Below are positions 6,417 through 30,488 of a DNA stretch of 36,737 bases, piece by piece (position 1 is the stretch's first letter; every line of letters starts with the position of its first letter). The stretch spans positions 1 through 36,737 of IMG/VR virus record IMGVR_UViG_3300023284_000344. One strand, 5' to 3'. A model generated the notes under the pieces. It ran no database searches, had not been told where the DNA came from, and saw only the letters and a list, made by a program, of their open reading frames with translations. This DNA is from a virus. Made by a program: the position numbers and the translations under genes.

Positions 6417-6898
6417 AACACCGCCGCCAAGACACCCAATATGATCACGCCTCGGTGCCATAAATTATCCACGAAATGTGCTTTCTTTTCCTCGTCCAGT
6501 AACTGTTGCCGAATCTGACTGATTTGCTGCTGCATACGGCCAGCATCGATAAGCGAGTTGTAAGCCTGAGACTGAGATTTGAGTGCCTCGGCATTGGCCT
6601 GGGCGATCTCAACATTGCCCTCAGAGGTTATGACATAACGCTGTAGTTGCTCCATAGCGGCCTTATCAAAGGTCGCCAGGTCGCCCGAAATGCCCGCCTG
6701 TGGCAATACCGGCAGCGTCAGAGGGCTTTGAGCCTCTATTGAGGCTTTCTCGATGTCCCAATCCGGTAAAGTGACCGGATTAGTGGCACATGCCAATAGT
6801 AATGGTAAAATCAACAGATGACTAAATGCTCGATAAGCAATTGTAAAAATCCTAGTTTTTGTAGAGGTTGGTGTAATAAACATTACAAAAGATGGCAT
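6413..6898 (-). CDS. lipoprotein, spanin-like, with altered N-terminus, 161 aa
   Basis: A lipobox is clear: LILPLLLAC, with the lipidated Cys at residue 37. The mature part is a long charged helix (VEIAQANAEALKSQSQAYNS, RMQQQISQIRQQLLDEEKKA) and ends in a hydrophobic segment (GVIILGVLAAVL). A lipid anchor at one end and a membrane segment at the other is the plan of a unimolecular spanin, which fuses inner and outer membranes in lysis. The C-terminal segment is short, so an o-spanin partner for the gene at 7350 is an alternative. The first 27 residues are read antisense from the HNH gene at 6818, so this N-terminus was probably created by that insertion. Confidence 0.6.
   Translation of the reverse strand: MPSFVMFITPTSTKTRIFTIAYRAFSHLLILPLLLACATNPVTLPDWDIEKASIEAQSPLTLPVLPQAGISGDLATFDKAAMEQLQRYVITSEGNVEIAQANAEALKSQSQAYNSLIDAGRMQQQISQIRQQLLDEEKKAHFVDNLWHRGVIILGVLAAVL
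6803..6811 (+). promoter_or_regulatory. extended -10 promoter for leaderless HNH gene
   Basis: TGG plus TAAAAT is one mismatch from TGnTATAAT. The hexamer ends six bases before the ATG at 6818, so transcription should begin on the start codon. The -35 position (6783-6788, GTGGCA) matches TTGACA at four of six. No Shine-Dalgarno precedes the ATG. The element lies inside codons for the lipoprotein signal peptide on the other strand. Confidence 0.6.
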
Positions 6899-7387
6899 AA
6901 GTATGGCGATCCTTACAGGCTAATAAAACCAGCATTTATTCACGGATTAAGCAAAACAAGAACTTATTCCATATGGGCAGATATGAAAAGTCGATGTTTT
7001 AATACAAATCACCAAAGTTATACAAATTATGGTAAAAGAGGAATAACAGTATGTCCTGAATGGATTGATAGATTTGAATCATTTTTGCATGACATGGGCG
7101 AACCTCCCACGGCAAAACATCAACTTGATCGTAGAAATAATAATGGTAATTATGAACGTGACAATTGTCATTGGGTGACATCTAAAGAACAACAAAATAA
7201 TAAACGAAGCAACCATTTTCTTACACATAATGGGCAAACCATGACAGTTACACAATGGGCAGAATTACTTGGTGTAAAAAGAAACATGCTTTATAAAAGA
7301 CTTATTGCTGACTGGACTGTGGAAAAAACACTTACAAAACCCCCATCAGCTAAAAGTGATCTACGCGGTCAGCATTCCATGTGCTGA
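6818..7387 (+). CDS. HNH homing endonuclease with zinc finger and HTH tail, 189 aa
   Basis: Residues 4-33 form a small zinc module (CSISNCKNPSFCRGWCNKH). The HNH core is YGKRGITVCPEWIDRFESF, then HQLDRRNNNGNYERDNCHW and SKEQQNN, the standard phage pattern in which LDR-x-N-x-x-GNY-x-x-x-N is the active-site region. Residues 130-175 contain an HTH-like recognition segment (TVTQWAELLGVKRNMLYKRL, then WTVEKTLTKP). The gene is strikingly AT-rich beside its neighbours. It lies antisense between the spanin-like genes at 7350 and 6413 and overlaps both ends, so its stop codon comes from neighbour sequence. Confidence 0.9.
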   Translation: MTKCSISNCKNPSFCRGWCNKHYKRWHKYGDPYRLIKPAFIHGLSKTRTYSIWADMKSRCFNTNHQSYTNYGKRGITVCPEWIDRFESFLHDMGEPPTAKHQLDRRNNNGNYERDNCHWVTSKEQQNNKRSNHFLTHNGQTMTVTQWAELLGVKRNMLYKRLIADWTVEKTLTKPPSAKSDLRGQHSMC

Positions 7388-9310: not shown

Positions 9311-9766
9311 ATGGCTAGAAAACAAGAACAACATGGAATGCGACATACGCCTGAATATGTAGCGTGGTTGCATTGTAAGGACCGATGTTTTAATAATAAA
9401 AGTCAAGATTTTCACGATTATGGTAAGCGTGGTATTACTGTTTGTGATCGATGGCGACATAGTTTCATAAACTTCTTTGCTGATATGAGTTATAAACCGT
9501 CATCAAATCATTCGCTAGATCGTATAGATAATGACGGTAATTATGAACCTTCAAATTGTCGATGGGCTACAAAAAAAGAACAAGCTCGAAATAGAAGATT
9601 ACAAAAAGGAAATATATCTGGCACAGCTGGTGTAACATGGCAAAAACAATGTAATAAATGGATTGTATTGCTTAATGTTAATGGCATTTTTAGATATTTC
9701 GGACTATATTCCGATCTTGATGAAGCAATTGCTGCACGCAAAGCTGCTGAATTAAAATATTGGTGA
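9311..9766 (+). CDS. HNH homing endonuclease with AP2-like C-terminus, 151 aa
   Basis: GGAGG lies seven bases before the ATG. The HNH core reads YGKRGITVCDRWRHSFINFF, then HSLDRIDNDGNYEPSNCRW and TKKEQARNR, the same pattern as the gene at 6818. The C-terminal 45 residues are AP2-like (GVTWQKQCNKWIVLLNVNGI, YFGLYSDLDEAIAARKAAEL), a DNA-recognition domain. The gene is AT-rich and antisense to the late unit, between the ejection protein at 9898 and the tail fibre gene. It is the only one of the four promoter-bearing HNH genes with a ribosome-binding site and a long leader. Confidence 0.92.
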   Translation: MARKQEQHGMRHTPEYVAWLHCKDRCFNNKSQDFHDYGKRGITVCDRWRHSFINFFADMSYKPSSNHSLDRIDNDGNYEPSNCRWATKKEQARNRRLQKGNISGTAGVTWQKQCNKWIVLLNVNGIFRYFGLYSDLDEAIAARKAAELKYW

Positions 9767-9769
9767 AAC

Positions 9770-9904
9770 ATGGTTAAATTACTACTTTGGATCATTGCAA
9801 TTCCGATTTGCTACATTTGGATGCAAGTAGATATTTGGTCTGGAATGGCAGCATGGATTCTGTTCCTTTGGTTACAAAGCCCTGACAAATTAGAAAATCA
9901 CTGA
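9770..9904 (+). CDS. small two-span membrane protein, 44 aa
   Basis: ATG 9770 lies three bases after the stop of the HNH gene, so the two would share a transcript. The product is MVKLLLWIIAIPICYIWMQV, then WSGMAAWILFLWLQ and a short polar tail: two hydrophobic spans rich in Trp and Ile. The 3' end overlaps the converging gene at 9898 by seven bases. It could be a true small membrane protein travelling with the nuclease or a chance frame; the clean membrane topology favours the former. Confidence 0.45.
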   Translation: MVKLLLWIIAIPICYIWMQVDIWSGMAAWILFLWLQSPDKLENH

Positions 9905-11322
9905 GCACCACGAGCAGTCAATTCAGATACTTTTTTGGCCGCCTTTGCGGTTCGTCCTGCAGCGGCAAGCCTGGACAAACCACCAACCGCAGGCACGATA
10001 AACGCACCAGCTGGCCCTGCTAAAGCAAAACCAAGTCCGGCACCAAAACCTCCTGATACCACACCAGTCGGTGCTAATTTACCAATAAACCGGAAAGCCT
10101 TCGTTGATAATGGACCACCTTTTGCAACACCTTTGATCGCTGCTTGCTCTGCTTGCGTAAATGTTCGCATCTTCTTTTTGTTTCTTGCCAGTTGACGAAA
10201 CTGCGTCGTTAAAGCATTCTCAAAACCACTGCCTGAAAACTGACCCGCATTGATACCAGCTCGCTCAATCAAATCCTCGATCACTTCGGTCTTTCTTGAC
10301 CGTGACCACAGACTCCGGGCAGACTTCAAATACTGTGCAGTCTCGACCGCATTTGGTGAACCTGAAAGTTGACCTGGTTTAAGATTTTCAATGAACTCAT
10401 CCCACTTGCGAACCAATCGCCCTGATGCTGCAGCGTCTGCTGTATCAATTGATGACTGACCCTGTTTGAAAACTCGTCGTAATTCTTCGGCTTTTGATAA
10501 GGTCAGTTGACCTGCTTTGGCATCTTTAGCAAGTTCTTTCAGCGCAGCATTGGTCTTTGGTGTCAGCTTGGCTCTGACTCCGCTCGCTCTCATTTCTTTT
10601 TCAATTCGTTTTGCAATGGTTTGGAAGGCTTCTTTAGAGATCGTAGTGCCAGAGTCGTCAACCAATTTATATAACTGAGTTGCCTGATTTTTTAATTGAC
10701 CAATCGTTGGAACCGGTGGTCGTTTGACTACTTGACCGACCTTACCAGCCTTGCTCACTCCGCCTAAACCAAGAGCAGTTAAGGCAATCTCTGGTGACAA
10801 ACTGGCCAGAGTTGCAAGCAATGGAGAAGCGCCTTTTTCTTCTGCAAGTTCTCCGAGATAATCACCCAAAGGAATTTCCCGAAAGGTTTTTGCCTCTTGT
10901 TGGCCGCTTATTACAAGCGGAACTGCAGAAAGGACGAATTTGATACCTTTGCCGAGCGCCTCGATTGGTTTCGCAATAGCTTCAGCGCCAGTACGACCAG
11001 CCTCAGTCAAGGGCTCGATAAACTCCTGTCCCTTACTTTCGACTGCCCTTACCGTATCGGCAGGGGCCAAAAAGTCAGGTCCACCCGGACCGCGTTGCGC
11101 ACCCTTTGCAAATTCAAAAGCAGTATCAGCAATTCCAGCCAGCCCCGCGACTGATTGAACTCCCAAATTGGCAGCAATAGAAGCGGCACCACGACCAATA
11201 TCACCCACAAACGACGTCTGTGGCGTTCGTAAATCAGTAGCCGGTTCTTCTACATCAAACTGGTCAAACACATTTTGTGGTGTGCTTGGTGCAGCATCAA
11301 ATTGATCAAAGACGTTTGCCAT
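9898..11322 (-). CDS. DNA-ejection protein in the gp16 position, 474 aa
   Basis: The N-terminus has two copies of a short motif, NVFDQFDAA and NVFDQFDVE, which is typical of phage internal virion proteins. Gly/Ala-rich segments follow that could insert in membranes (residues 40-60, 130-145, 175-195, 420-455), alternating with charged helices. Long helical proteins with amphipathic and hydrophobic stretches that lie inside the capsid and are ejected with DNA are the rule in this place; in P22 this is gp16. There is no transglycosylase motif. The stop of the upstream gene overlaps its start by one base. Confidence 0.7.
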   Translation of the reverse strand: MANVFDQFDAAPSTPQNVFDQFDVEEPATDLRTPQTSFVGDIGRGAASIAANLGVQSVAGLAGIADTAFEFAKGAQRGPGGPDFLAPADTVRAVESKGQEFIEPLTEAGRTGAEAIAKPIEALGKGIKFVLSAVPLVISGQQEAKTFREIPLGDYLGELAEEKGASPLLATLASLSPEIALTALGLGGVSKAGKVGQVVKRPPVPTIGQLKNQATQLYKLVDDSGTTISKEAFQTIAKRIEKEMRASGVRAKLTPKTNAALKELAKDAKAGQLTLSKAEELRRVFKQGQSSIDTADAAASGRLVRKWDEFIENLKPGQLSGSPNAVETAQYLKSARSLWSRSRKTEVIEDLIERAGINAGQFSGSGFENALTTQFRQLARNKKKMRTFTQAEQAAIKGVAKGGPLSTKAFRFIGKLAPTGVVSGGFGAGLGFALAGPAGAFIVPAVGGLSRLAAAGRTAKAAKKVSELTARGAQ

Positions 11323-12583: not shown

Positions 12584-13409
12584 TTAAAGACCAAAACCTA
12601 CACTACCACCGCCGCCGCCACCGCCTCCACCACCACCGGATTGATTGAGTAATTGTTGCAGCAGGAAGTTATTCAGGCCACCTTGCAAAGCGTTATTTAT
12701 CGATCCGGCAGAACCTAGAGTGCCGCCTGCTTGTGCCACACCAAGGCTGGCTAACAGGTTGGAGATATTACCGCTTGCTGCGCTAGAACCAGCAACAGCC
12801 TGTCCGGTCGCTTGTGGACCGAACCCCGCCAACTGCAGCAAACGGTTGATCACCTGGTTCTCAGCGAGACTCGCTGTTTGTGTGCCGATCTCACGCAATA
12901 CATTGCCACCGAAAGGATCGCCAACTGCGGCGCCAGATGCTTCAACACCACGACGTGATTGATCGACCAGAAAATCCACACCGGGCAGGTTTTCAAATAT
13001 CTCCGACAAGGCATTGGCAGTGACAGGTTGACCGGTTTCATTGTCAAAAGTAGTGCCACCACCACCGCCGCCACCGCTGAAGAAACCTCCGCCACCACCA
13101 GTACCAGCTCCAGCGAGAAAACCTCCGGCACCGACGGTGCGAGAAGTGCCACCACTCGGTGGTGCGGTGCTACCAAAACCCTCAAAACCCGGAATGAAGG
13201 CTTGAGGCTTGAGCCAGTGTGTTCAGTGCGGCATTGCCGACTTGTCGGCCAGGCTGAGTCAGACCAAGGATAATGTCGAACTGGCGTCTTTGTTCATCAA
13301 TTCCTTCCTGACCACCAGCTACCTGTTCACCAGCAGCACTGCGGGCTGCACTACTGCCAATGAGTGCCGAACCTATCGCACCGGCTGCTATTGCTGCGCC
13401 TGCTGGCAT
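12584..13409 (-). pseudogene. DNA-ejection protein in the gp7 position, frameshifted
   Basis: Two frames add up to one protein. The first runs from ATG 13409 (MPAGAAIAAGAIGSALIGSS, then EGIDEQRRQFDIILGLTQPG, NAALNTLAQ) and stops at 13182. The second continues one frame away (FIPGFEGFGSTAPPSGG, Gly-rich stretches, LSEIFENLPGVDFLVDQSRR) to 12584. At the join GGCTTGA is present twice in tandem (13199-13212). Removing one copy gives an unbroken reading of 272 residues with LAQAFIPGFEG across the join. The N-terminus is the hydrophobic, Gly/Ala-rich form typical of gp7-like proteins, and the C-terminus ends in an 11-Gly run. It is either a recent mutation or a sequence error. Confidence 0.75.
13199..13212. 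repeat. 7-bp tandem duplication causing the frameshift
   Basis: GGCTTGA occurs at 13199-13205 and again at 13206-13212. Seven is not a multiple of three, and the reading frames on either side differ by exactly this amount (826 minus 7 is 819, or 273 codons). Slipped-strand copying of this kind produces such duplications. Confidence 0.85.
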
Positions 13410-13428: not shown

Positions 13429-14124
13429 CTACTGCTGACATTTGACTATTCTCATTTCACCGTCGAGAAACTCGACAATAACATTTCCAATGAATGCCTT
13501 GTTGTCATCGACTTGTTCGGCAGGATAAAACCCTGCCAGTTTAGCCCATACATTGTAGAACCAGATCGCCTTGTCATACAGACCAGCTGTTGCCATCGCC
13601 AAAGCAATGCCAACATATTGATTGTGATTCTCGTCGTGCTCATGATTGGTTTCTATGCCCTCGAGTTCGAGCAACTGGTGAAATTGCTCACCCAAGTCTT
13701 TGAACTGATCTGCCTTCGCTGCCCAATGAGATATGTGAATGGAAAAAAATTCGTATCCATTTCTTTCAAAAGTTTTTAACATTCCAACTGATTTTGCTAA
13801 TATTCTGGCTGGTTTGTTATCCTTAATTCTGGTGACAATCTCCATTACAGCAGTTTGCGTAAAACCCTCTGCCATTGCTTCAAGTGTAATGTCGATAGAT
13901 CGCTTTCGATATTCTGGGAGTATGGATGTGTGGACTTCGTAAACGCCCGGAGCAATGTTGTCCATAAGGAAACCGTATCCTTCCCCTAGACATCCAAATC
14001 CACCACGCTCTAAAACCGGCGAAACATCCAATGGTGGTTTCTGACCGTTCACTAAATGGCCCTCAATCACGCCTGGATGATTGATGATCTCATTGAGTTC
14101 GGCAGCGCAGTCATAACTGATCAT
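13429..14124 (-). CDS. GNAT-like protein in the gp14 position, 231 aa
   Basis: Residues 35-150 resemble an acetyltransferase fold: GGFGCLGEGYGFLMDNIAPG, a beta strand VYEVHTSILPEYRKRS, then AVMEIVTRIKDNKPARILAKSV and FERNGYEFFS, where R-x-K-S and NGY are in the usual places of the cofactor loop and last strand. The C-terminal 80 residues are helical. Proteins with this fold lie between the tail genes and ejection genes in P22-like and related podoviruses, where gp14 is needed for particle infectivity. True acetylation is not established. Its start overlaps the upstream stop as ATGA. Confidence 0.6.
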   Translation of the reverse strand: MISYDCAAELNEIINHPGVIEGHLVNGQKPPLDVSPVLERGGFGCLGEGYGFLMDNIAPGVYEVHTSILPEYRKRSIDITLEAMAEGFTQTAVMEIVTRIKDNKPARILAKSVGMLKTFERNGYEFFSIHISHWAAKADQFKDLGEQFHQLLELEGIETNHEHDENHNQYVGIALAMATAGLYDKAIWFYNVWAKLAGFYPAEQVDDNKAFIGNVIVEFLDGEMRIVKCQQ

Positions 14125-14430: not shown

Positions 14431-14529
14431 TTAAACCGTCACAGGATAAGGAAAAGAAGCTGCTGTCCCCCACTTTCCCCATACTGGTACAACATACGGG
14501 ATTTCACCAGAAGGATTTGTATTGTTCAT
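14431..14529 (-). CDS. micro-ORF, 32 aa
   Basis: GGAGGTAG lies three to ten bases before ATG 14529 and overlaps the end of the gp10-like gene. The product is MNNTNPSGEIPYVVPVWGKW, ending in a short hydrophobic-aromatic tail. Ribosome-binding site strength and exact fit between two genes support it. It may be a small tail component; function unknown. Confidence 0.5.
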   Translation of the reverse strand: MNNTNPSGEIPYVVPVWGKWGTAASFPYPVTV

Positions 14530-15899
14530 AATCTACCTCCATCAACTTCTAATTGTGTGTCGGCAACCAAACGACGCACGGCATCGGAGATATAGTGCCG
14601 GTAGGCACGATTCCTGGATGAGCCGAGCTTGGTCCAGATCGGCACCTCGTTGAACTCACCAGTTAAGCCGAGAGAACGGGTCGAGCCGACATCAACAAAA
14701 GTATTGCCGCCATCGTCGGAAATTTCCAGGCCAAGTTCAGATGAGGTCGCACCAGCAGCTGCACCACCGACCTCACAGTGCGTCTCGAGTCGTCGGTGCC
14801 GGGCAATACGCCCCTCGGCGTACACAGTCGGGTAAGTCCACTCCATGCGAATAGCATTACCGAACTCTGTCGTCAGGATCTCGTCAACCGTGCCGAACTG
14901 CCCGGATTCCGAATCGAAGGCAACCTGCGTGTTATACACATTAATCACATCATCGATGCGCCAGCGTGACAGCCCGAGCGACCTGCGTTCGTGCCACTCA
15001 CCGGTAGCAATATCAAAGACAAAGGTGCCGCGATCTGTGGTCAGACAATAAAACTGATGACCTTCAGTTACATAACTAAAGCCGAAGATATTGACCGGGT
15101 TATTGATTTGCCGGAACACCTGATCAATCGCGTGTGAGGATATTTTGCGCGTTTGAATGCCCAGTAACTGCCGTGGAATACGGTCCTGATCGACAAAAAA
15201 CACCCCGTCAGCCAGCTTTACCGGTGAGAACGCGGCAATACAGCCGGTCTCAGCAACACCGGATGGCACCCGTCCTAGCGGAAAGCCTGAGCCGCCGATA
15301 ACAAACCACATCTCAAGGGTCTTACTGCCAAACAGGACCAGTCGTGCCTTGTCGACCAGCAGCGACACCAGCACATCCGGTTCTAAGGATGCGGTGCCAA
15401 AGTCAGTCGCCACGAACGAGTCAGAATTGCCGAGCTCCGAGGTGAAGAAGCGATCTGAGCCAGTCTCAATTGAGACAATGTAGCCCTCGATCACATCGAC
15501 CAATTCGGACACTCGCTTATCGACATCAGTAATGACAGCCAGCGTGCTGCCATCATAGGTATAGTCCGAGCTGTCAGTGTAGATAGACAGAGCATCACGG
15601 TTCTCGGCCATCGACACCAGGCCTCCACCGAGAATAGCGCCGATTGATGTGGTTGCACCCGTAGATGAGATCCGGTACAGAACAGCACCGCCGACCGCAT
15701 ACAACTCTGTGCCGAACACAGCAGAGCCACGATAAGGTGTAGTCGGCAGGGTGCCGAGTGCATTGATGCCCGGACAACCGATCAGTGTGATCGGCCCTTT
15801 GGCAAGGGCTGCACTCTTTTCGGCATAACAGTTGACCAGCCGTGACTGAATAGACTGTCCTCGCCGGTTGGAGTGTATCGGCAGGATTAGCTTGGCCAT
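14526..15899 (-). CDS. P22 gp10-like tail accessory (DNA stabilisation) protein, 457 aa
   Basis: It begins MAKLILPIHSNRRGQSIQSR, then LVNCYAEKSAALAKGPITLI and GCPGINALGTLPTTPYRGSA, the typical opening of the packaged-DNA stabilisation family to which P22 gp10 belongs. Repeated beta strands follow (VLYRISSTGATTSIG, ADGVFFVDQDRIPR, HQFYCLTTDRGTFVFDIATG), the form expected of the tail-plug propeller. Its length, about 460 residues, fits the family (P22 gp10 is 472). It closes the portal-tail channel with the gp4-like protein next to it. Confidence 0.85.
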   Translation of the reverse strand: MAKLILPIHSNRRGQSIQSRLVNCYAEKSAALAKGPITLIGCPGINALGTLPTTPYRGSAVFGTELYAVGGAVLYRISSTGATTSIGAILGGGLVSMAENRDALSIYTDSSDYTYDGSTLAVITDVDKRVSELVDVIEGYIVSIETGSDRFFTSELGNSDSFVATDFGTASLEPDVLVSLLVDKARLVLFGSKTLEMWFVIGGSGFPLGRVPSGVAETGCIAAFSPVKLADGVFFVDQDRIPRQLLGIQTRKISSHAIDQVFRQINNPVNIFGFSYVTEGHQFYCLTTDRGTFVFDIATGEWHERRSLGLSRWRIDDVINVYNTQVAFDSESGQFGTVDEILTTEFGNAIRMEWTYPTVYAEGRIARHRRLETHCEVGGAAAGATSSELGLEISDDGGNTFVDVGSTRSLGLTGEFNEVPIWTKLGSSRNRAYRHYISDAVRRLVADTQLEVDGGRL

Positions 15900-15902
15900 G
15901 AC

Positions 15903-16316
15903 TCAGCCCCGATTGATATCGTAGAAGAACCTTGTTCTCTTGGCGCGACCCTGCGGCACGTGAGACAAACTAAAGTCAGGCCGCACGAAAGTAGATCGTT
16001 CAAGAAACACCAATGCCTCATTTGCCGCAGCTACCAATGACACATCAGGTGGCAGGCCATGATCAGTCTGCAAACGCCTGGCGAATAAAATGCGTACTGG
16101 TTCTTCGTGTTCTCGCTCGAGCTCCAGTTCATCGGCAATCTCATCAACCGGATAGTCACCGACGTCAATCTCGTCCGACTGCAGCTCGGCCATCAGACCA
16201 TTGAAGGTGATTATGGCGTCGCGGTTCTGCTCTGCAGTTGGTGCCTGACCCTCACGAATGACACCTGCCTTACGCAGTGCATCGTCAATCATATCGCCTA
16301 GCGTGATGACAGCCAT
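15903..16316 (-). CDS. P22 gp4-like head-completion protein, 137 aa
   Basis: The product starts MAVITLGDMIDDALRKAGVI, continues FNGLMAELQSDEIDVGDYP and ends with a basic C-terminal tail (RAKRTRFFYDINRG). This matches the small alpha-helical head-tail adaptors of the P22 gp4 group, which bind under the portal and carry the gp10 ring. Gene order (coat, then this, then gp10-like) is the same as in P22. The length, 137 against 166 in P22, is shorter but usual for the wider family. Confidence 0.8.
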   Translation of the reverse strand: MAVITLGDMIDDALRKAGVIREGQAPTAEQNRDAIITFNGLMAELQSDEIDVGDYPVDEIADELELEREHEEPVRILFARRLQTDHGLPPDVSLVAAANEALVFLERSTFVRPDFSLSHVPQGRAKRTRFFYDINRG

Positions 16317-23317: not shown

Positions 23318-23677
23318 ATGATCAAAACCACTTGCAGCCACTGTAAAAGCCAACTCGAAAAACATCGTATCGGAAAAAACAGGTATTGTCTTTCGTGTCA
23401 TGCAGCTTACATGAGAGCAAATCGGCCAAAGCACAGCGAAATATCTCCACAACAACGAATGAAAGCAAATGCACGTTCATATGCCAATGTCTATCTGCAA
23501 CGAGGAAAGATACAGAGAAGTCTCTGCAATTGTGGCGCTCCTGGCACCGAAATGCACCATGCTGATTATTCAAAACCTTTAGAAATCATATGGACTTGCC
23601 AGCCATGTCACCTGAGACTTCACGTGGAACATCAGGATAAGCCCGCTTCTGCTCGTCAGTCAGTCCAGCAATGGTAA
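23318..23677 (+). CDS. HNH-like zinc-finger endonuclease, 119 aa
   Basis: Two Cys pairs near the start (CSHCKSQLEKHRIG, YCLSCHAAY) are followed by a basic spacer. Then CNCGAPGTEMHHADYSKPLE and CQPCHLRLH form the catalytic zinc module. The HHADY..PL..W.C..CH pattern matches the gene at 2223. The last ~15 residues are read from antisense ParB-like sequence, so the natural end was probably near residue 102 and the present stop is borrowed. It is antisense to the terminase region and transcribed from its own promoter. Confidence 0.8.
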   Translation: MIKTTCSHCKSQLEKHRIGKNRYCLSCHAAYMRANRPKHSEISPQQRMKANARSYANVYLQRGKIQRSLCNCGAPGTEMHHADYSKPLEIIWTCQPCHLRLHVEHQDKPASARQSVQQW

Positions 23678-23894
23678 TGGTCGGCACCTTCAGCATGTCC
23701 ATGTTGAGTGCTGCCATCAGCCGACCGTGGCCAGCAATGATCTGATCGTTCTCATCTACCAGGATCGGATTGGTAAAACCGAACTCGACAATCGAGGCAA
23801 CAATCTGCTCGATCTGTTCCTGTGAGTGAGTACGGGCGTTGCGCTCGTACAGTTTAAGCCCATAGGCGTTCTTGTATTCGACCTTGAGCGTCAC
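23586..23894 (-). CDS. ParB-like nuclease-domain protein, C-terminally truncated, 102 aa
   Basis: A GTG start (GTGA overlap) follows GGAGGAAGT. The product has the ParB/Srx fold signatures: YERNARTHSQEQIEQIVASI, EFGFTNPILVDENDQIIAGH with GHGR, and VPTITIAGLTDEQKRAY. In full-length relatives the KRAY segment leads into an ADN-type helix and more; here it changes to PDVPREVSGDMAGKSI and stops, exactly where HNH-derived sequence begins. Only 60 bases separate the HNH start from the small terminase, so the missing part is not stored there. In phages such proteins often sit beside terminase genes. Confidence 0.75.
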   Translation of the reverse strand: MTLKVEYKNAYGLKLYERNARTHSQEQIEQIVASIVEFGFTNPILVDENDQIIAGHGRLMAALNMDMLKVPTITIAGLTDEQKRAYPDVPREVSGDMAGKSI

Positions 23895-24118: not shown

Positions 24119-24444
24119 CACGCCACCTGTGCGAAGTGCAGGTTCTTGACCCAGTAGATGTGTTCCTCATTGGCCTCGGATGTCAGGCCATTGTCCAGCT
24201 GCACCGACAATACCTTGCGCTCGCGCTTGCGACTAAGACGCTGAATCACATGCGCCGATGCCGGGATAGTAATTGTCATCTCGGTGGATGCAACGAGCGC
24301 AGTCCAGGCAATCAATTCTTCACGTGTTTGAAAATCATCCAGGCGATAGCGTGCCGTGGTCGGTGTGAACTGTGCATTGTCCTTGTCGATGGGGCGTACC
24401 ACAAAGGTTGCCGTGGAATCCTCATTGAAAGTTCGCTTGGCCAT
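24118..24444 (-). CDS. small beta-rich structural-type protein, 108 aa
   Basis: ATG 24444 overlaps the stop of the giant repeat gene (TGATG) and is preceded by AGAGGAA. The product is ATFVVRPIDKDNAQFTPTTA, then RYRLDDFQTREELIAW, TEMTITIPASAHVI and RERKVLSVQLDNG: strands separated by short loops in an Ig-like order. Proteins with the pattern YR-x-DD ... W ... ITI ... VTV lie beside virion decoration or fibre genes in many phages. Its join to the giant gene suggests a partner in the virion. Confidence 0.6.
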   Translation of the reverse strand: MAKRTFNEDSTATFVVRPIDKDNAQFTPTTARYRLDDFQTREELIAWTALVASTEMTITIPASAHVIQRLSRKRERKVLSVQLDNGLTSEANEEHIYWVKNLHFAQVA

Positions 24445-27400
24445 CAGCAATTCCTCTGCAGTATCGCAATCAAGGTGTTGGGCGACTTGCCTGTGATCGC
24501 GATTGTATCATCCTCTGCTTTGATACCAACAGTGGGTGCCTCACCGCTAACCGGTATGGTGATGTCCTCTGCCTTGATCAATATCTTAGGCCCACTGCCT
24601 GTAATCAGAATACGATCAACAGTCGATGGTTTTGGTGCCGGCACCAATGCCGCCGACTTGGGATGCTGATACGGGGTCTGTCTGAATTTCGCCGGTGGCG
24701 TGATCCAATCATCTTGTAAGAATGGTTTCTCACCTTCGAACTCGATAAGCGCCAAAGCCGTACCGAGTACCGCTGGCGGTTCAGGCGGGTCTGACAGGAA
24801 TTTAATCAGGTGAATAACGCCAAACGGCTTTTCACCAGCATCCTCAAGGATTGTTAATGGGATACCTACCTGGAAAGGCGTCTGAATCTGTACGTCGACA
24901 GTCGGGTTCGGCCAATCGTGCTGCCTAATTTCCGGTGGTTCCGGCTCAACCAGTGCGACAGACTTCGGATGTTGATAAGGCGTTTGTGTTGGTTTTGCCG
25001 GTGGTGTTATCCAATCGCTTTGTTCGAATGGTTTGTCACCCGCATCCTCGATCAACGGTAACGAACTGCCGACCTGGAAGGGTTGCTGAGTCGGTAGTTG
25101 CTCGATCCTGCCAAGCGTAAATCTCGGCAGGGAGTCGACAACTTGTGTGACTAAGGTGGCTGGCTTAGGAGTCTGGAAAGGCTGCTGCGTTATTGGACTA
25201 AACGGGTTCAGCCAATCACTTTGATTGAACGGTTTCTCACCAGCGCCTTCTATCAGGGCTAATGGACTGCCCACCTGCAATGGTGTCTGGCGTTTGAACG
25301 GCTCAGGATTCGGGAACTTCTCCTCCATGAACGGCGGTTCTGGAACACCAGCAATCAGCGGTAAGAAAGTGCCTACCTGAAATGGCACCTGTCGCTTGAA
25401 CGCTGGTGGCGTGATCCAGTCATCCTGTACAAAAGAACGCCCCAGAATGTGCGCGAACATGCGATTGTCAGCAGTAATCGGCACAGCATCCAGAGTAATC
25501 TCGAACTCGTACTCATCACCCGCGACGTTATCGGCAGCCCTGAACTCAATCGACCAATAGAACTCGTAGTCATCCCCCGGTCCGATATTCTGTGGATTGG
25601 TGCCGGCTTCTTTATAAACAGAACCGACAAAGTTCTGCGGTGTCGGGGTGAGTCGTTCTACTGCCGATGTAGCACCGTCAACATCCGGGCCATCAATAAC
25701 CCTGACATTGCTGCTGGCAGCAGTAACAAATTCAGATGGTGCGCCGTTCTTGATATAGCGAAGGGCGAATGATGGATCAGCAGATGCAGCCCCGTCGTTG
25801 TGAATCTTGCTGATCAGCAGGAATGGCTTACCCAACTCACCAATAGATATGCCAAGCCCCGGTGAGGCTTGATCTTCAGAGCCTAAGAGAGTGCAAAGCT
25901 CATGCGAGGCGTTGTCATCATCGGTCCATTGGTAGTGCGCTATATCCGGGTTTCTGCCGATATGTAACTGAAGCGAACTGCTGATCTGAACCGGCTCTTG
26001 AATCGGCTCTGGAAAACCCGGAGTAATCCAGTCACTCTGATCGAATGGTTTGTCACCCGCGTCCTGAATGATCGTTAAGGGACTGCCTACCTGGAACGGT
26101 GTCTGTGTTGGCAGCGGCTCTGGCTGCGGCCAGTCATTAAGCCTGAACCGTCTCTCTGGTGGTGGTGTTTCCAGCAGCACATACGATGAGCCAAGCTGGA
26201 AAGGCGTCTCTCGTGCAAACGGTTCCGGTTGCGGCCAATCGTCAAATTTGAAGGGCTTATCGCCAGCGTCCTCAAGAACAACCAGCGGCATACCGTATTG
26301 GTATGGCTGTTGTGTAGGCTTGGCAGAAGGTACCGGCCACTTGATCTCTTGGAATGGCGGCTCCGGTGGTGCAACCAATACGACCGGGATGCCAAGCTGG
26401 AATGGTGTCTGTGTTGGTACTGCCGGTGGCACTGGCCACTTGAGCTCAAAGAAAGGCGGCTCAGGCTCGGTAAATTCCAGCGGCAGGATCGTGCCAACCT
26501 GAACAGGGGTCTGTCGTTTGTCAGGTGGCGGGTTGATCCAATCACTTTGCTCGAACGGTTTGTTGCCAGCATCTTCTAAAATACCCAAAGGCAGTCCGAG
26601 TTGAACTGGCGTCTGCCTGAATTTCGCTGGTGGAACAGGCCACTTGAGCTCGAAAAATGGCGGCTCGGGTTCTGCAAATATCAGAGGTAATAGCGTGCCA
26701 AGCTGGAACGGCGCCTGAACTTGTATCGCTGGTGGCTTCGGCCAATCAGACTGCAGGAACGGCTTGCCAATTAACGGTTGAGAACTACCTATTTGTAATG
26801 GCTGTTGAGTCGGGATCGGTTCTGGGTTTGGCCAATCAAGCTGTGCGAACGGCGCCGCCGGCAGTTCAAGCAATGTAATCGGTGCGGCTACCTGGAACGG
26901 CTGTTGCCGGAACGCTTTCTCAATGCGACCAAGAACAAGTCTTGGTTGAGAATCGACAACCTCTACAACTAAAACTGGTGGCTGTGGAAGTTGGAATGGC
27001 TCTTGTGTTATTGGAACTTGTGGGTTCGGCCACTCAGTTTTCAGGAAAGGTTTGTCACCAGCATCCTCGAGGATTGCTAGCGGCATACCAAGCTGCAGCG
27101 GTGTTTGCCTTGTAAACTGCTCTGGATTCAGCCAGTCGCTTTGCAAGAATGGTTTAGTAGCAACCTCAAGTACCGCAGATGAAGTACCTACCTGGAATGG
27201 CTGTTGAGTTGGGATCGCCGCCGGAACCGGCCATTTAATCTCAAGGAATGGTGGTTCGGGCTCGGCAAAAATTAGTGGTAATTGTGCGCCAAGCTGAAGC
27301 GGTGTTTGCCGCACATCTACCGGCGGCGTGATCCAATCCGATTGTAGGAAGGGCTTGGCACCGGCATCCTCAAGAATCGGCAGCGGCATACCGACTTGGA

Positions 27401-28784
27401 GTGGGGTCTGTCTTTTCTCTGCCGCTGGCGTGGGCCACTTTATTTCTAAGAAAGGTGGCTCTGGTTCCGTGAACTCAAGCGGTAATATGGTGCCGACCTG
27501 GAATGGTGTTTGAACCTTCAGATCAACAGTTGGATTCGGCCAGTCGCTCTGTAGAAATGGCTTTTCTTCTGCAGCTAAGGTGATCGGCTGAGCAAACTGC
27601 TGCGGTTGCTGGACACGCTCGACAGTCGGGTTCAGCCAGTCGAGTTGTGCAAATGGTTTTATCCTCAGCCCAAGTGGAATACCTGCTTGATCCGGCTGCT
27701 GAATTTGCTCAACAGACGGCACCAACCAGTCGGACTGATCGAATGGTTTCTCGCCAGCGTCAGTAAGAATCGGCAGAGACATACCAAGCTGGAAGGGAGT
27801 CTGCCGCTTGTGAGGTTCAGGTATCGGCCACTTCAGTTCGAAAAACGGAGGTTCAGGTGCCGTGAAAATCAGCGGCAGCAGAGTGCCTAGCTGGAATGGC
27901 GTTTGACGTTTATGCGGTTCAGGATTGGGCCAGTCATAGAAAGCAAACGGACTGATTTCTAAAATTGGTATCGGACTGCCAACTTGAAACGGTGTCTGTC
28001 GGAACTTAGCCGGTGGCACAGGCCACTTCAGTTCAAAGAACGGTGGTTCTGGTTCGGCAAAGATTAACGGCAGTAAGGTGCCGACCTGGAACGGGGTTTG
28101 CCGTAACTTCGGTGGCGGTACTGGCCACCGAATCTCCATAAACGGTGGCTCAGGTTCAGCGAAGATCAGCGATAGTAATGTGCCAAGCTGAAGCGGTGTT
28201 TGTGTCGGTAGCGGCGGTGGATTTATCCAGTCGGATTGATCAAAGGGCTTCTCAACGGAAACCAGTGCCGTAAAACTACCGTGTTGCTCTGGCTCCTCGC
28301 GCTCAAAAGCAGGCGGTGTGATCCAGTCACTCTGTAAGAAGGGCTTGTCACCGGCATCCTCAAGTATGGGCAGCGGTATGCCGACCTGCACCGGCGTCTG
28401 ACGTTTATCGGGCGATGGCTGTGGCCACTCAGATTGTCTTTGTGGTGGTGGTTCTGGTGGTTCTGGCTCCCCACCAATTAAGGCGATAGGACTACCAAGC
28501 AAGTCCGGTGGCCGGGTCGAGCGAATAAATACATAGTCGAAATCCGCCTGAATCGTTAAATCAGTGCTTGGTGGTGGGACAAGAACAATAGGTTTCGGCA
28601 GCTGGAACGGCTGCTGAATTACCTTCGGGGGAGGATTGGGCCAGTCGTCTTGCGCGAATGGCTTTTCGCCGGCAGTCTCAAGAATGCCAAGCGGCATCCC
28701 TGAGACAATCGCTATGGCTGCCGCATGGCCGACAGCGCGCGTCAGAGTTTCGCGCTTACTAAAATGCGGAGCGCGAATGGTCAT
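24444..28784 (-). CDS. giant Pro/Trp/Phe-rich repeat protein, probable virion fibre, 1446 aa
   Basis: Nearly the whole protein is built from about 34 modules of 33-40 residues. Each has a tip such as KPFLQSDWINPP or PPFFELKWPVPPAK, then RQTPFQVG and a hydrophobic stretch such as LPLIFAEPE or LPILEDAG. Two kinds alternate loosely: SDW type and ELKW type. A folded, beta-rich insert of about 180 residues (935-1115; bases about 25440-25980) breaks the series. The C-terminus has a different repeat (PKILIKAEDITIPVSG, PTVGIKAEDDTIAITG). Related short W-x-x-P modules occur in marine phage proteins of unknown role. A rod or surface fibre is likely; enzyme motifs are absent. It could also be a scaffold-like filler. 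Confidence 0.7.
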   Translation of the reverse strand: MTIRAPHFSKRETLTRAVGHAAAIAIVSGMPLGILETAGEKPFAQDDWPNPPPKVIQQPFQLPKPIVLVPPPSTDLTIQADFDYVFIRSTRPPDLLGSPIALIGGEPEPPEPPPQRQSEWPQPSPDKRQTPVQVGIPLPILEDAGDKPFLQSDWITPPAFEREEPEQHGSFTALVSVEKPFDQSDWINPPPLPTQTPLQLGTLLSLIFAEPEPPFMEIRWPVPPPKLRQTPFQVGTLLPLIFAEPEPPFFELKWPVPPAKFRQTPFQVGSPIPILEISPFAFYDWPNPEPHKRQTPFQLGTLLPLIFTAPEPPFFELKWPIPEPHKRQTPFQLGMSLPILTDAGEKPFDQSDWLVPSVEQIQQPDQAGIPLGLRIKPFAQLDWLNPTVERVQQPQQFAQPITLAAEEKPFLQSDWPNPTVDLKVQTPFQVGTILPLEFTEPEPPFLEIKWPTPAAEKRQTPLQVGMPLPILEDAGAKPFLQSDWITPPVDVRQTPLQLGAQLPLIFAEPEPPFLEIKWPVPAAIPTQQPFQVGTSSAVLEVATKPFLQSDWLNPEQFTRQTPLQLGMPLAILEDAGDKPFLKTEWPNPQVPITQEPFQLPQPPVLVVEVVDSQPRLVLGRIEKAFRQQPFQVAAPITLLELPAAPFAQLDWPNPEPIPTQQPLQIGSSQPLIGKPFLQSDWPKPPAIQVQAPFQLGTLLPLIFAEPEPPFFELKWPVPPAKFRQTPVQLGLPLGILEDAGNKPFEQSDWINPPPDKRQTPVQVGTILPLEFTEPEPPFFELKWPVPPAVPTQTPFQLGIPVVLVAPPEPPFQEIKWPVPSAKPTQQPYQYGMPLVVLEDAGDKPFKFDDWPQPEPFARETPFQLGSSYVLLETPPPERRFRLNDWPQPEPLPTQTPFQVGSPLTIIQDAGDKPFDQSDWITPGFPEPIQEPVQISSSLQLHIGRNPDIAHYQWTDDDNASHELCTLLGSEDQASPGLGISIGELGKPFLLISKIHNDGAASADPSFALRYIKNGAPSEFVTAASSNVRVIDGPDVDGATSAVERLTPTPQNFVGSVYKEAGTNPQNIGPGDDYEFYWSIEFRAADNVAGDEYEFEITLDAVPITADNRMFAHILGRSFVQDDWITPPAFKRQVPFQVGTFLPLIAGVPEPPFMEEKFPNPEPFKRQTPLQVGSPLALIEGAGEKPFNQSDWLNPFSPITQQPFQTPKPATLVTQVVDSLPRFTLGRIEQLPTQQPFQVGSSLPLIEDAGDKPFEQSDWITPPAKPTQTPYQHPKSVALVEPEPPEIRQHDWPNPTVDVQIQTPFQVGIPLTILEDAGEKPFGVIHLIKFLSDPPEPPAVLGTALALIEFEGEKPFLQDDWITPPAKFRQTPYQHPKSAALVPAPKPSTVDRILITGSGPKILIKAEDITIPVSGEAPTVGIKAEDDTIAITGKSPNTLIAILQRNC
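24640..28720 (-). repeat. array of ~34 diverged ~37-codon modules
   Basis: The protein-level repeat is obvious, but neighbouring DNA copies differ at many silent positions, so the array is old or has been kept varied. About 30 units keep the W of the DW or KW tip. Two units are altered in the same way (VVDSQPRLVLGRIE and VVDSLPRFTLGRIE) and look like copies of each other moved to two places. Confidence 0.85.
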
Positions 28785-29835: not shown

Positions 29836-30046
29836 CAGATGACTGTTCCTTCACGTAGAGTCCCGCATTATCACAGCAAGGAGTTTGAGTTCCTTCTGTT
29901 TCTCGCGTTTCCATCTCTTTCTCGCCTCGAACCACAGGAGTAATGCACCATCTTGTATGCCTTGGCGCTAATGTATCGCACGTCGGACATCGTTCGCGGT
30001 TATCTACGATTTGACGGTTATCGATTAATTTTGAAAAGTTAGCCAT
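29825..30046 (-). CDS. small zinc-finger protein, 73 aa
   Basis: GAAGGAG is placed well before the ATG. The product carries RCPTCDTLAPRHTRWC (C-x-x-C ... H-x-x-x-x-C) and TPCCDNAGLYVKEQS, two potential metal sites. It overlaps the hydroxylase-like gene upstream by eight bases and the next zinc-finger gene downstream by 11, so the three are read together. Function unknown. Confidence 0.6.
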   Translation of the reverse strand: MANFSKLIDNRQIVDNRERCPTCDTLAPRHTRWCITPVVRGEKEMETRETEGTQTPCCDNAGLYVKEQSSGEN

Positions 30047-30488
30047 TGTCTTGCTCCTTCAGCAATACAATTAAATGCGTTCTGCTGGTCTTACCATTAT
30101 TAAATGACTGATGTTCGATTGATCGGTCAGTATGATATATCTTGCCAACTTGCAGATGATGCTCTTTTCGGATGCCATTTTCAAAAGACAATGAGACAAC
30201 ATCCTTATTTGTTTCCACGGGTATATGAAATCCAAAGCCGTTATCGTGATGACGATACAGCTTTCCACCTGGCCTGAGCCTTAAAAACAATAATTGCTGC
30301 CAACTATCGACCGGCCAGCGAGCGACAATTTCATCGACATCTTCTGCCTGTTCTTTACAAATGGCTGCCTGATGAGAAGTCTTATCGCTTACGTGTGTTT
30401 CCCATTTCGACACAGCATCAAGTATTCCTTTCAACTGAGACATCGTGACTGCCGATACTTCTCCAATCTCTGTATACATCACATCCAT
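30039..30488 (-). CDS. Asp/Asn hydroxylase-like iron/2-oxoglutarate enzyme, 149 aa
   Basis: The core is WQQLLFLRLRPGGKLYRHHD, then GFGFHIPVETNKDVVSL, QVGKIYHTDRSIEHQSFNNG and RTHLIVLL. RHHDNG gives an H-x-D pair, EHQSFNNG the distal His, and SRTH the Arg that would hold 2-oxoglutarate, as in the aspartyl/asparaginyl beta-hydroxylase cupin family. The N-terminal 50 residues are helical. A start at 30479 (TGATG overlap) is an alternative. Related genes lie in virion-protein clusters of several phages, and the substrate could be a virion protein. Confidence 0.65.
   Translation of the reverse strand: MDVMYTEIGEVSAVTMSQLKGILDAVSKWETHVSDKTSHQAAICKEQAEDVDEIVARWPVDSWQQLLFLRLRPGGKLYRHHDNGFGFHIPVETNKDVVSLSFENGIRKEHHLQVGKIYHTDRSIEHQSFNNGKTSRTHLIVLLKEQDNG

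What the first reader, a model, noticed from the sequence alone, without database searches (positions are those of the whole stretch)
13182..13409. 7-bp tandem duplication breaks the gp7-position ejection gene
GGCTTGA is repeated at 13199-13212. Removing one copy joins two frames into a 272-residue protein with a smooth sequence (LAQAFIPGFEG). The later part also shows the Gly-rich and LSEIFENLPG regions expected for it. If real, ejection would be lost or the gene could vary by slippage. If an error, the deposited sequence should be corrected.
Basis: seen in the sequence. Interest (0 to 1): 0.7.

Follow-up and report, generated by a model that had tools for sequence, protein, structure and literature searches.

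The report
Seven-base duplication splits phage ejection gene
One uncultivated short-tailed phage record carries a small head-to-tail duplication that splits a gene which relatives keep whole for injecting DNA; it is most likely a recent damaging change or a record error, so mainly a quality flag.

Summary
A period-7 tract lies at 13198-13213 (two exact copies at 13199-13212), where one minus-strand gene falls into two frames: 13182-13409 (75 aa) and 12584-13204 (206 aa). The two pieces match consecutive, non-overlapping parts of one family, PHROG 598 "DNA ejection"; P22 gene 7 protein hits that family at 2e-95. Neighbours follow the P22 late-gene order. In 93 of 104 viral loci with a family match both domains lie in one open frame and in none is the gene split; the other 11 matched by the second domain only. 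Three named phages also have one whole gene. So these are not two separate genes. A seven-base repeat alone is ordinary (2 seen, 1.72 expected); its place and size make it the best candidate lesion. The break is specific to this record. Whether it is an error, a defective variant or a fixed change needs raw reads, which I could not see. One twist: the broken frame ends in UUU-UGA, a known kind of +1 "shifty stop" leading into the second frame; its base rate (14 of 551 stops) makes chance the better explanation. Low interest.

The parts
13182..13409 (-). First piece (75 aa, ATG start) of the P22 gp7-family ejection gene; ends early in UUU-UGA
   Evidence: PHROG 598 positions 10-76, E 1.2e-8; profile of 6 relatives, positions 12-79; purine-rich Shine-Dalgarno-like bases before the ATG
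12584..13204 (-). Second piece (206 aa read from the second repeat copy, in the other frame) of the same gene; no well-placed start of its own (first candidate is TTG at 13009, no Shine-Dalgarno-like bases)
   Evidence: PHROG 598 positions 85-228, E 2.3e-5; profile positions 153-274; starts listed
13198..13213 (.). Period-7 tandem tract (2.3 copies), best candidate for the lesion; CAAGCC is read as Gln-Ala in the first frame from one copy and in the second frame from the other
13182..13187 (-). UUU-UGA at the end of the first frame; a +1 slip here would enter the second frame (possible but unproven shifty stop)
   Evidence: motif class described in PMC10885494 (passages)
14526..15899 (-). Head closure protein Hc3 (P22 gp10 position)
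   Evidence: PHROG 578, 2e-80
15903..16316 (-). Head-tail adaptor Ad3 (P22 gp4 position)
   Evidence: PHROG 637, 3.4e-12
13429..14124 (-). 231-aa gene directly upstream of the broken gene
   Evidence: no family hit; position matches the tail-fibre-like gene before the ejection gene in P26218
11322..12581 (-). 419-aa gene at the gp20 position
   Evidence: PHROG 13634, unknown function; position only
9898..11322 (-). 474-aa gene at the gp16 position
   Evidence: PHROG 21712; position only

Best explanation
The window holds a P22 gp7-family ejection gene of a short-tailed phage whose reading frame is broken, almost certainly by the seven-base tandem duplication at 13198-13213. Shown: one family, two frames, single intact frame in all relatives where both domains were found. 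Inferred: the event is recent and private to this record, arising by slipped pairing across the short direct repeat that borders the unit, or entering as an error from few reads. If present in the phage DNA it would give a 75-residue stump and, by analogy with P22 gene 7 mutants, normal-looking particles that cannot deliver DNA unless another phage supplies the protein. I judge a record error or a minority defective genome more likely than a change fixed in a living lineage.
For: Both pieces hit PHROG 598 in consecutive parts and a profile of six relatives in consecutive parts, 12-79 and 153-274. P22 gp7 is in the same family. 93 of 104 family loci have both domains in one frame, 0 have the first domain alone, 0 have two ORFs; all 80 of 80 loci fetched by the first piece are intact, 80 distinct sequences among the 93. 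DSL-LC05, P26218 and VvAW1 carry one whole gene in the same order. In L003 the residues just past the break (SLYIPDWSG) fit the second frame's QAFIPGFEG without gap (score 19; 86 of 5000 shuffles reach it), while the first frame's tail fits no relative better than shuffles. After the break the second frame has no stop but its natural end. P22 gene 7 deletions are lethal yet give morphologically normal particles (PMC4992974, passages), and all three ejection proteins are needed for DNA injection (PMC10883804, passages).
Against: No reads and no close relative were available, so copy number in the population is unknown. The linker around the break is variable, so the lesion cannot be placed by homology alone beyond one relative (L003 and its duplicate L002); DSL-LC05 and L005/L006 align weakly with the first frame's tail. 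A four-base or larger repeat is common enough that a lesion elsewhere in the 43-base zone, for example in TTTT, is not excluded. Error and real mutation are not separated.
Confidence: 0.8

Rival explanations
1. Sequence or assembly error: the phage genome has an intact gene and the record is wrong at this point.
For: Only this record shows a break; 0 of 104 family loci do. The one frame change found when 282 relative ORFs with hits were mapped on the window is this one. The gene is needed for infection in P22, so a fixed loss is unlikely.
Against: A seven-base tandem duplication is not the usual homopolymer-type error, and a 16-base tract is shorter than normal assembly words, so at least some reads probably carried it (general knowledge, not tested).
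Confidence: 0.45
2. Real but defective genome: a spontaneous slippage duplication in part or all of the sampled genomes, packaged in particles that need help from an intact sibling.
For: Tandem unit with short bordering repeat is the usual product of slipped pairing (general knowledge); P22 lacking gp7 still makes normal-looking particles.
Against: A lethal change should stay rare and would seldom win as the assembled consensus; no population data.
Confidence: 0.4
3. Live gene with +1 recoding: ribosomes slip at UUU-UGA and enter the second frame, giving full-length protein at reduced level.
For: The first frame ends exactly in UUU-UGA and a +1 step leads into the second frame. UUU and CCC are reported as the next most slippery codons before a stop after CUU (PMC10885494, passage).
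Against: 14 of 551 stops in the equivalent frame of 24 window ORFs are also preceded by TTT, so the coincidence is about 1 in 40. No Shine-Dalgarno-like stretch upstream (sequence), no unusual RNA folding (z -0.79), no relative uses it.
Confidence: 0.07
4. Two separate genes that overlap.
For: Two open frames exist side by side.
Against: Both pieces are parts of one family and no relative splits them; the second piece lacks a plausible start site.
Confidence: 0.02

Closest known systems
Salmonella phage P22 gene 7 (gp7, ejection protein; PHROG 598)
   Same: Same PHROG family; same place in the late operon after gp4, gp10 and two small genes and before two larger ejection-position genes
   Different: P22 gp7 is one 229-residue frame; here the frame is broken and a glycine-rich linker lies between the domains
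DNA ejection / transfer genes of Rhodoferax phage P26218 (gp29), phage DSL-LC05 and Vibrio phage VvAW1
   Same: Same family by profile and same gene order around the head closure gene
   Different: All three are single intact genes; protein identity with the window pieces is about 26 to 33 percent
prfB-type +1 shifty-stop frameshifting
   Same: A U-rich codon followed by UGA, with the +1 frame open beyond it (PMC10885494 passages)
   Different: UUU in place of CUU, no Shine-Dalgarno-like stimulator, not conserved in relatives

Membership tests
P22 gp7 / PHROG 598 DNA ejection protein | Sequence match to the family profile over both halves | tested here: met
   First piece positions 10-76, second piece 85-228 of 240; P22 gp7 itself 1-232
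P22 gp7 / PHROG 598 DNA ejection protein | Place in the late operon downstream of head closure gp10 | tested here: met
P22 gp7 / PHROG 598 DNA ejection protein | One continuous reading frame | tested here: not met
   TGA at 13184-13182, second piece in another frame; hence a broken copy of a member, not a working member as written
P22 gp7 / PHROG 598 DNA ejection protein | Packaged in the virion and needed for DNA delivery | not testable with these tools
   Known for P22 (PMC4992974 and PMC10883804, passages)
P22 gp7 / PHROG 598 DNA ejection protein | Fold like solved ejection proteins | tested here: inconclusive
   Model of relative L012 has mean pLDDT 44.8, too poor to compare; profile search of solved structures gave only one weak hit at E 0.17
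+1 shifty-stop programmed frameshift | Slippery codon before a stop, with the +1 frame open | tested here: met
   UUU-UGA
+1 shifty-stop programmed frameshift | Stimulator (Shine-Dalgarno-like element or RNA structure) | tested here: not met
   None seen upstream; folding z -0.79
+1 shifty-stop programmed frameshift | Conservation of the two-frame layout in relatives | tested here: not met
   0 of 104 family loci split
Phase-variable (slipped-strand) gene | Repeat number varies among related genomes | tested here: inconclusive
   Pattern allowing either copy number found 0 matches in viral contigs; no close relative exists to compare

The most novel reading that the evidence does not exclude
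The duplication is real and common in this phage, and the gene survives because ribosomes slip +1 at the UUU-UGA that the new frame happens to reach, so an essential injection protein is made at low level from a broken frame.
Probability: 0.06. Interest if true: 0.5.

Novelty: new member of a known kind. Interest (0 to 1): 0.15.

Why it matters
Mostly as annotation quality: automatic callers will report a short hypothetical protein and a headless second ORF where one ejection gene belongs, and the phage may be wrongly described as lacking gp7. If the change is real, it would be a naturally occurring ejection-minus genome, or, less likely, a test case for rescue of an essential phage gene by a shifty stop.

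Tried and rejected
Separate genes: rejected, because both pieces are one family and no relative is split.

Chance repeat with no link to the break: not fully excludable, but about 0.002 such repeats are expected in a zone this small (arithmetic).

Transcriptional slippage: no long homopolymer in the zone, so not pursued.

Close relatives: a scan with the second piece found 2 loci at 40 percent identity; scans with the 419-aa and head closure genes gave at best 46 and 37 percent in the best segment; a rescan with the L003 protein returned only the two contigs already held; an exact flank pattern found none; genome contigs gave none with the second piece; DNA-level comparison with named phages gave two short matches, neither at this gene; neither piece alone matched a named phage by tblastn.

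Structure: the AlphaFold model of relative L012 was too poor (mean pLDDT 44.8), so no fold search was run. Solved-structure profile search: one weak hit, E 0.17. Pfam gave no hit to the two pieces and NCBIfam none.

Limits of counts: the 93 of 104 count uses ORFs of at least 60 aa from 177 loci held at that time (L001, the window itself, left out); 73 of those loci had no family match at the thresholds used. 80 of the 104 loci were fetched by the first piece itself and are therefore not an independent sample; of the loci fetched by neighbouring genes, 11 have both domains and 11 the second domain only. The 93 contain 80 distinct sequences. The junction comparison used 15 distinct segments; relatives whose anchor scored below 25 or whose segment repeated were dropped. 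In one search only the parts of the window covered by relatives (about 7 kb) could show frame changes, and queries were the ORFs of L002-L162 only.

Full report
What is there. The window is a 36,737-base virus record without a named host. On the minus strand, a frame starting at ATG 13409 with purine-rich bases before it runs for 75 codons and ends in UGA at 13184-13182. A second frame, closed upstream by a stop at 13225, is open down to 12584. Between them, at 13198-13213, lies a 16-base tract of period 7 with two exact copies at 13199-13212. The bases CAAGCC occur once in each copy: the first is read as Gln-Ala in the first frame and the second as Gln-Ala in the second frame.

Is it more than chance? 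The repeat alone is not. Two exact seven-base tandem duplications occur in the window and 1.72 are expected; for runs of at least nine matching positions the figures are 1 and 0.07. What counts is that it lies in the 43-base zone where both frames are open and has the right size modulo 3. About 0.002 such repeats are expected in a zone that small (arithmetic). No other tandem repeat of fitting period lies in the zone, only short homopolymers.

What gene it is. The first piece matches PHROG 598, "DNA ejection", at positions 10-76 (E 1.2e-8) and the second at 85-228 (E 2.3e-5). A profile built from six relatives gives 12-79 and 153-274. P22 gene 7 protein hits the same PHROG at 2e-95. The window order, from major capsid protein through adaptor, head closure, a 102-aa gene, a 231-aa gene, the broken gene, then 419-aa and 474-aa genes, matches P22, DSL-LC05, P26218 and VvAW1. 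It is therefore a gp7-family gene at the gp7 position.

Relatives. Of 177 loci held when counted, 104 have an ORF matching the profile. In 93 both domains are in one ORF, in 11 only the second domain matched, in none only the first, and no locus has two family ORFs. The 93 hold 80 distinct sequences of 192 to 481 residues. All 80 loci fetched by the first piece are intact; 11 further intact ones come from searches with neighbouring genes, which did not select on this gene. The three named phages have one intact gene each. When ORFs of 161 relatives were mapped on the window, 282 had hits and the only frame change found was at this place, from one query (L033); this covers only about 7 kb of the window.

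Where exactly the break lies. The stretch between the two domains is variable. In L003, the residues directly after the first domain (SLYIPDWSG) match the second frame's QAFIPGFEG without a gap, score 19, reached by 86 of 5000 shuffles; the first frame's tail reaches only 4, as 2400 of 5000 shuffles do. This points to the repeat as the switch point. Against it, L005/L006 and DSL-LC05 align the first domain through the tail of the first frame, weakly. I rate the duplication as the lesion at about 0.85.

What it does. As written, the gene yields a 75-residue stump; the second piece has no credible start (first candidate TTG 13009 without Shine-Dalgarno-like bases). In P22, gene 7 deletions are lethal though particles look normal, and gp20 and gp16 are packaged less well (PMC4992974, passages). 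All three ejection proteins are needed for DNA injection (PMC10883804, passages). By analogy the change would abolish infection. That makes a fixed loss in a living phage unlikely and favours a record error or a defective minority genome. I could not see reads and cannot separate these.

A possible twist. The first frame ends in UUU-UGA, and a +1 slip of the Phe tRNA there would continue in the second frame. UUU before a stop is reported among the most slippery codons for +1 shifts after CUU (PMC10885494, passage). But 14 of 551 stops in the corresponding frame of 24 window ORFs also follow TTT, there is no stimulator, and no relative uses such a layout. I keep it as the boldest reading at 0.06. 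Two searches of the paper library for related cases, one for short tandem duplication with slippage and one for ejection protein with programmed frameshift (listings and abstract openings only), showed no title describing this case; that is not a claim that none exists.

Verdict. It is a broken copy of a known gene kind, likely of no wider meaning, and a useful correction flag.

Noticed in passing
327-809, 2223-2642, 6818-7387, 9311-9766 (+): Four endonuclease-type ORFs (three HNH, one endonuclease VII-like) on the plus strand; the one at 9311-9766 sits between two minus-strand genes of the virion module.
   Followed up: no
24444-28784 (-): A 1446-aa ORF with no PHROG or Pfam match.
   Followed up: no
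30039-30488 (-): A 149-aa ORF matching Asp/Asn beta-hydroxylase, PF05118, E 1.5e-8, above the curated cut-off.
   Followed up: no
23586-23894 (-): A 102-aa ParB-like ORF near the terminase gene.
   Followed up: no
12605-12638: Run of glycine codons at the end of the broken gene, an imperfect GGN repeat of period 3, 6 and 12, itself a place prone to length change or sequencing trouble.
   Followed up: no
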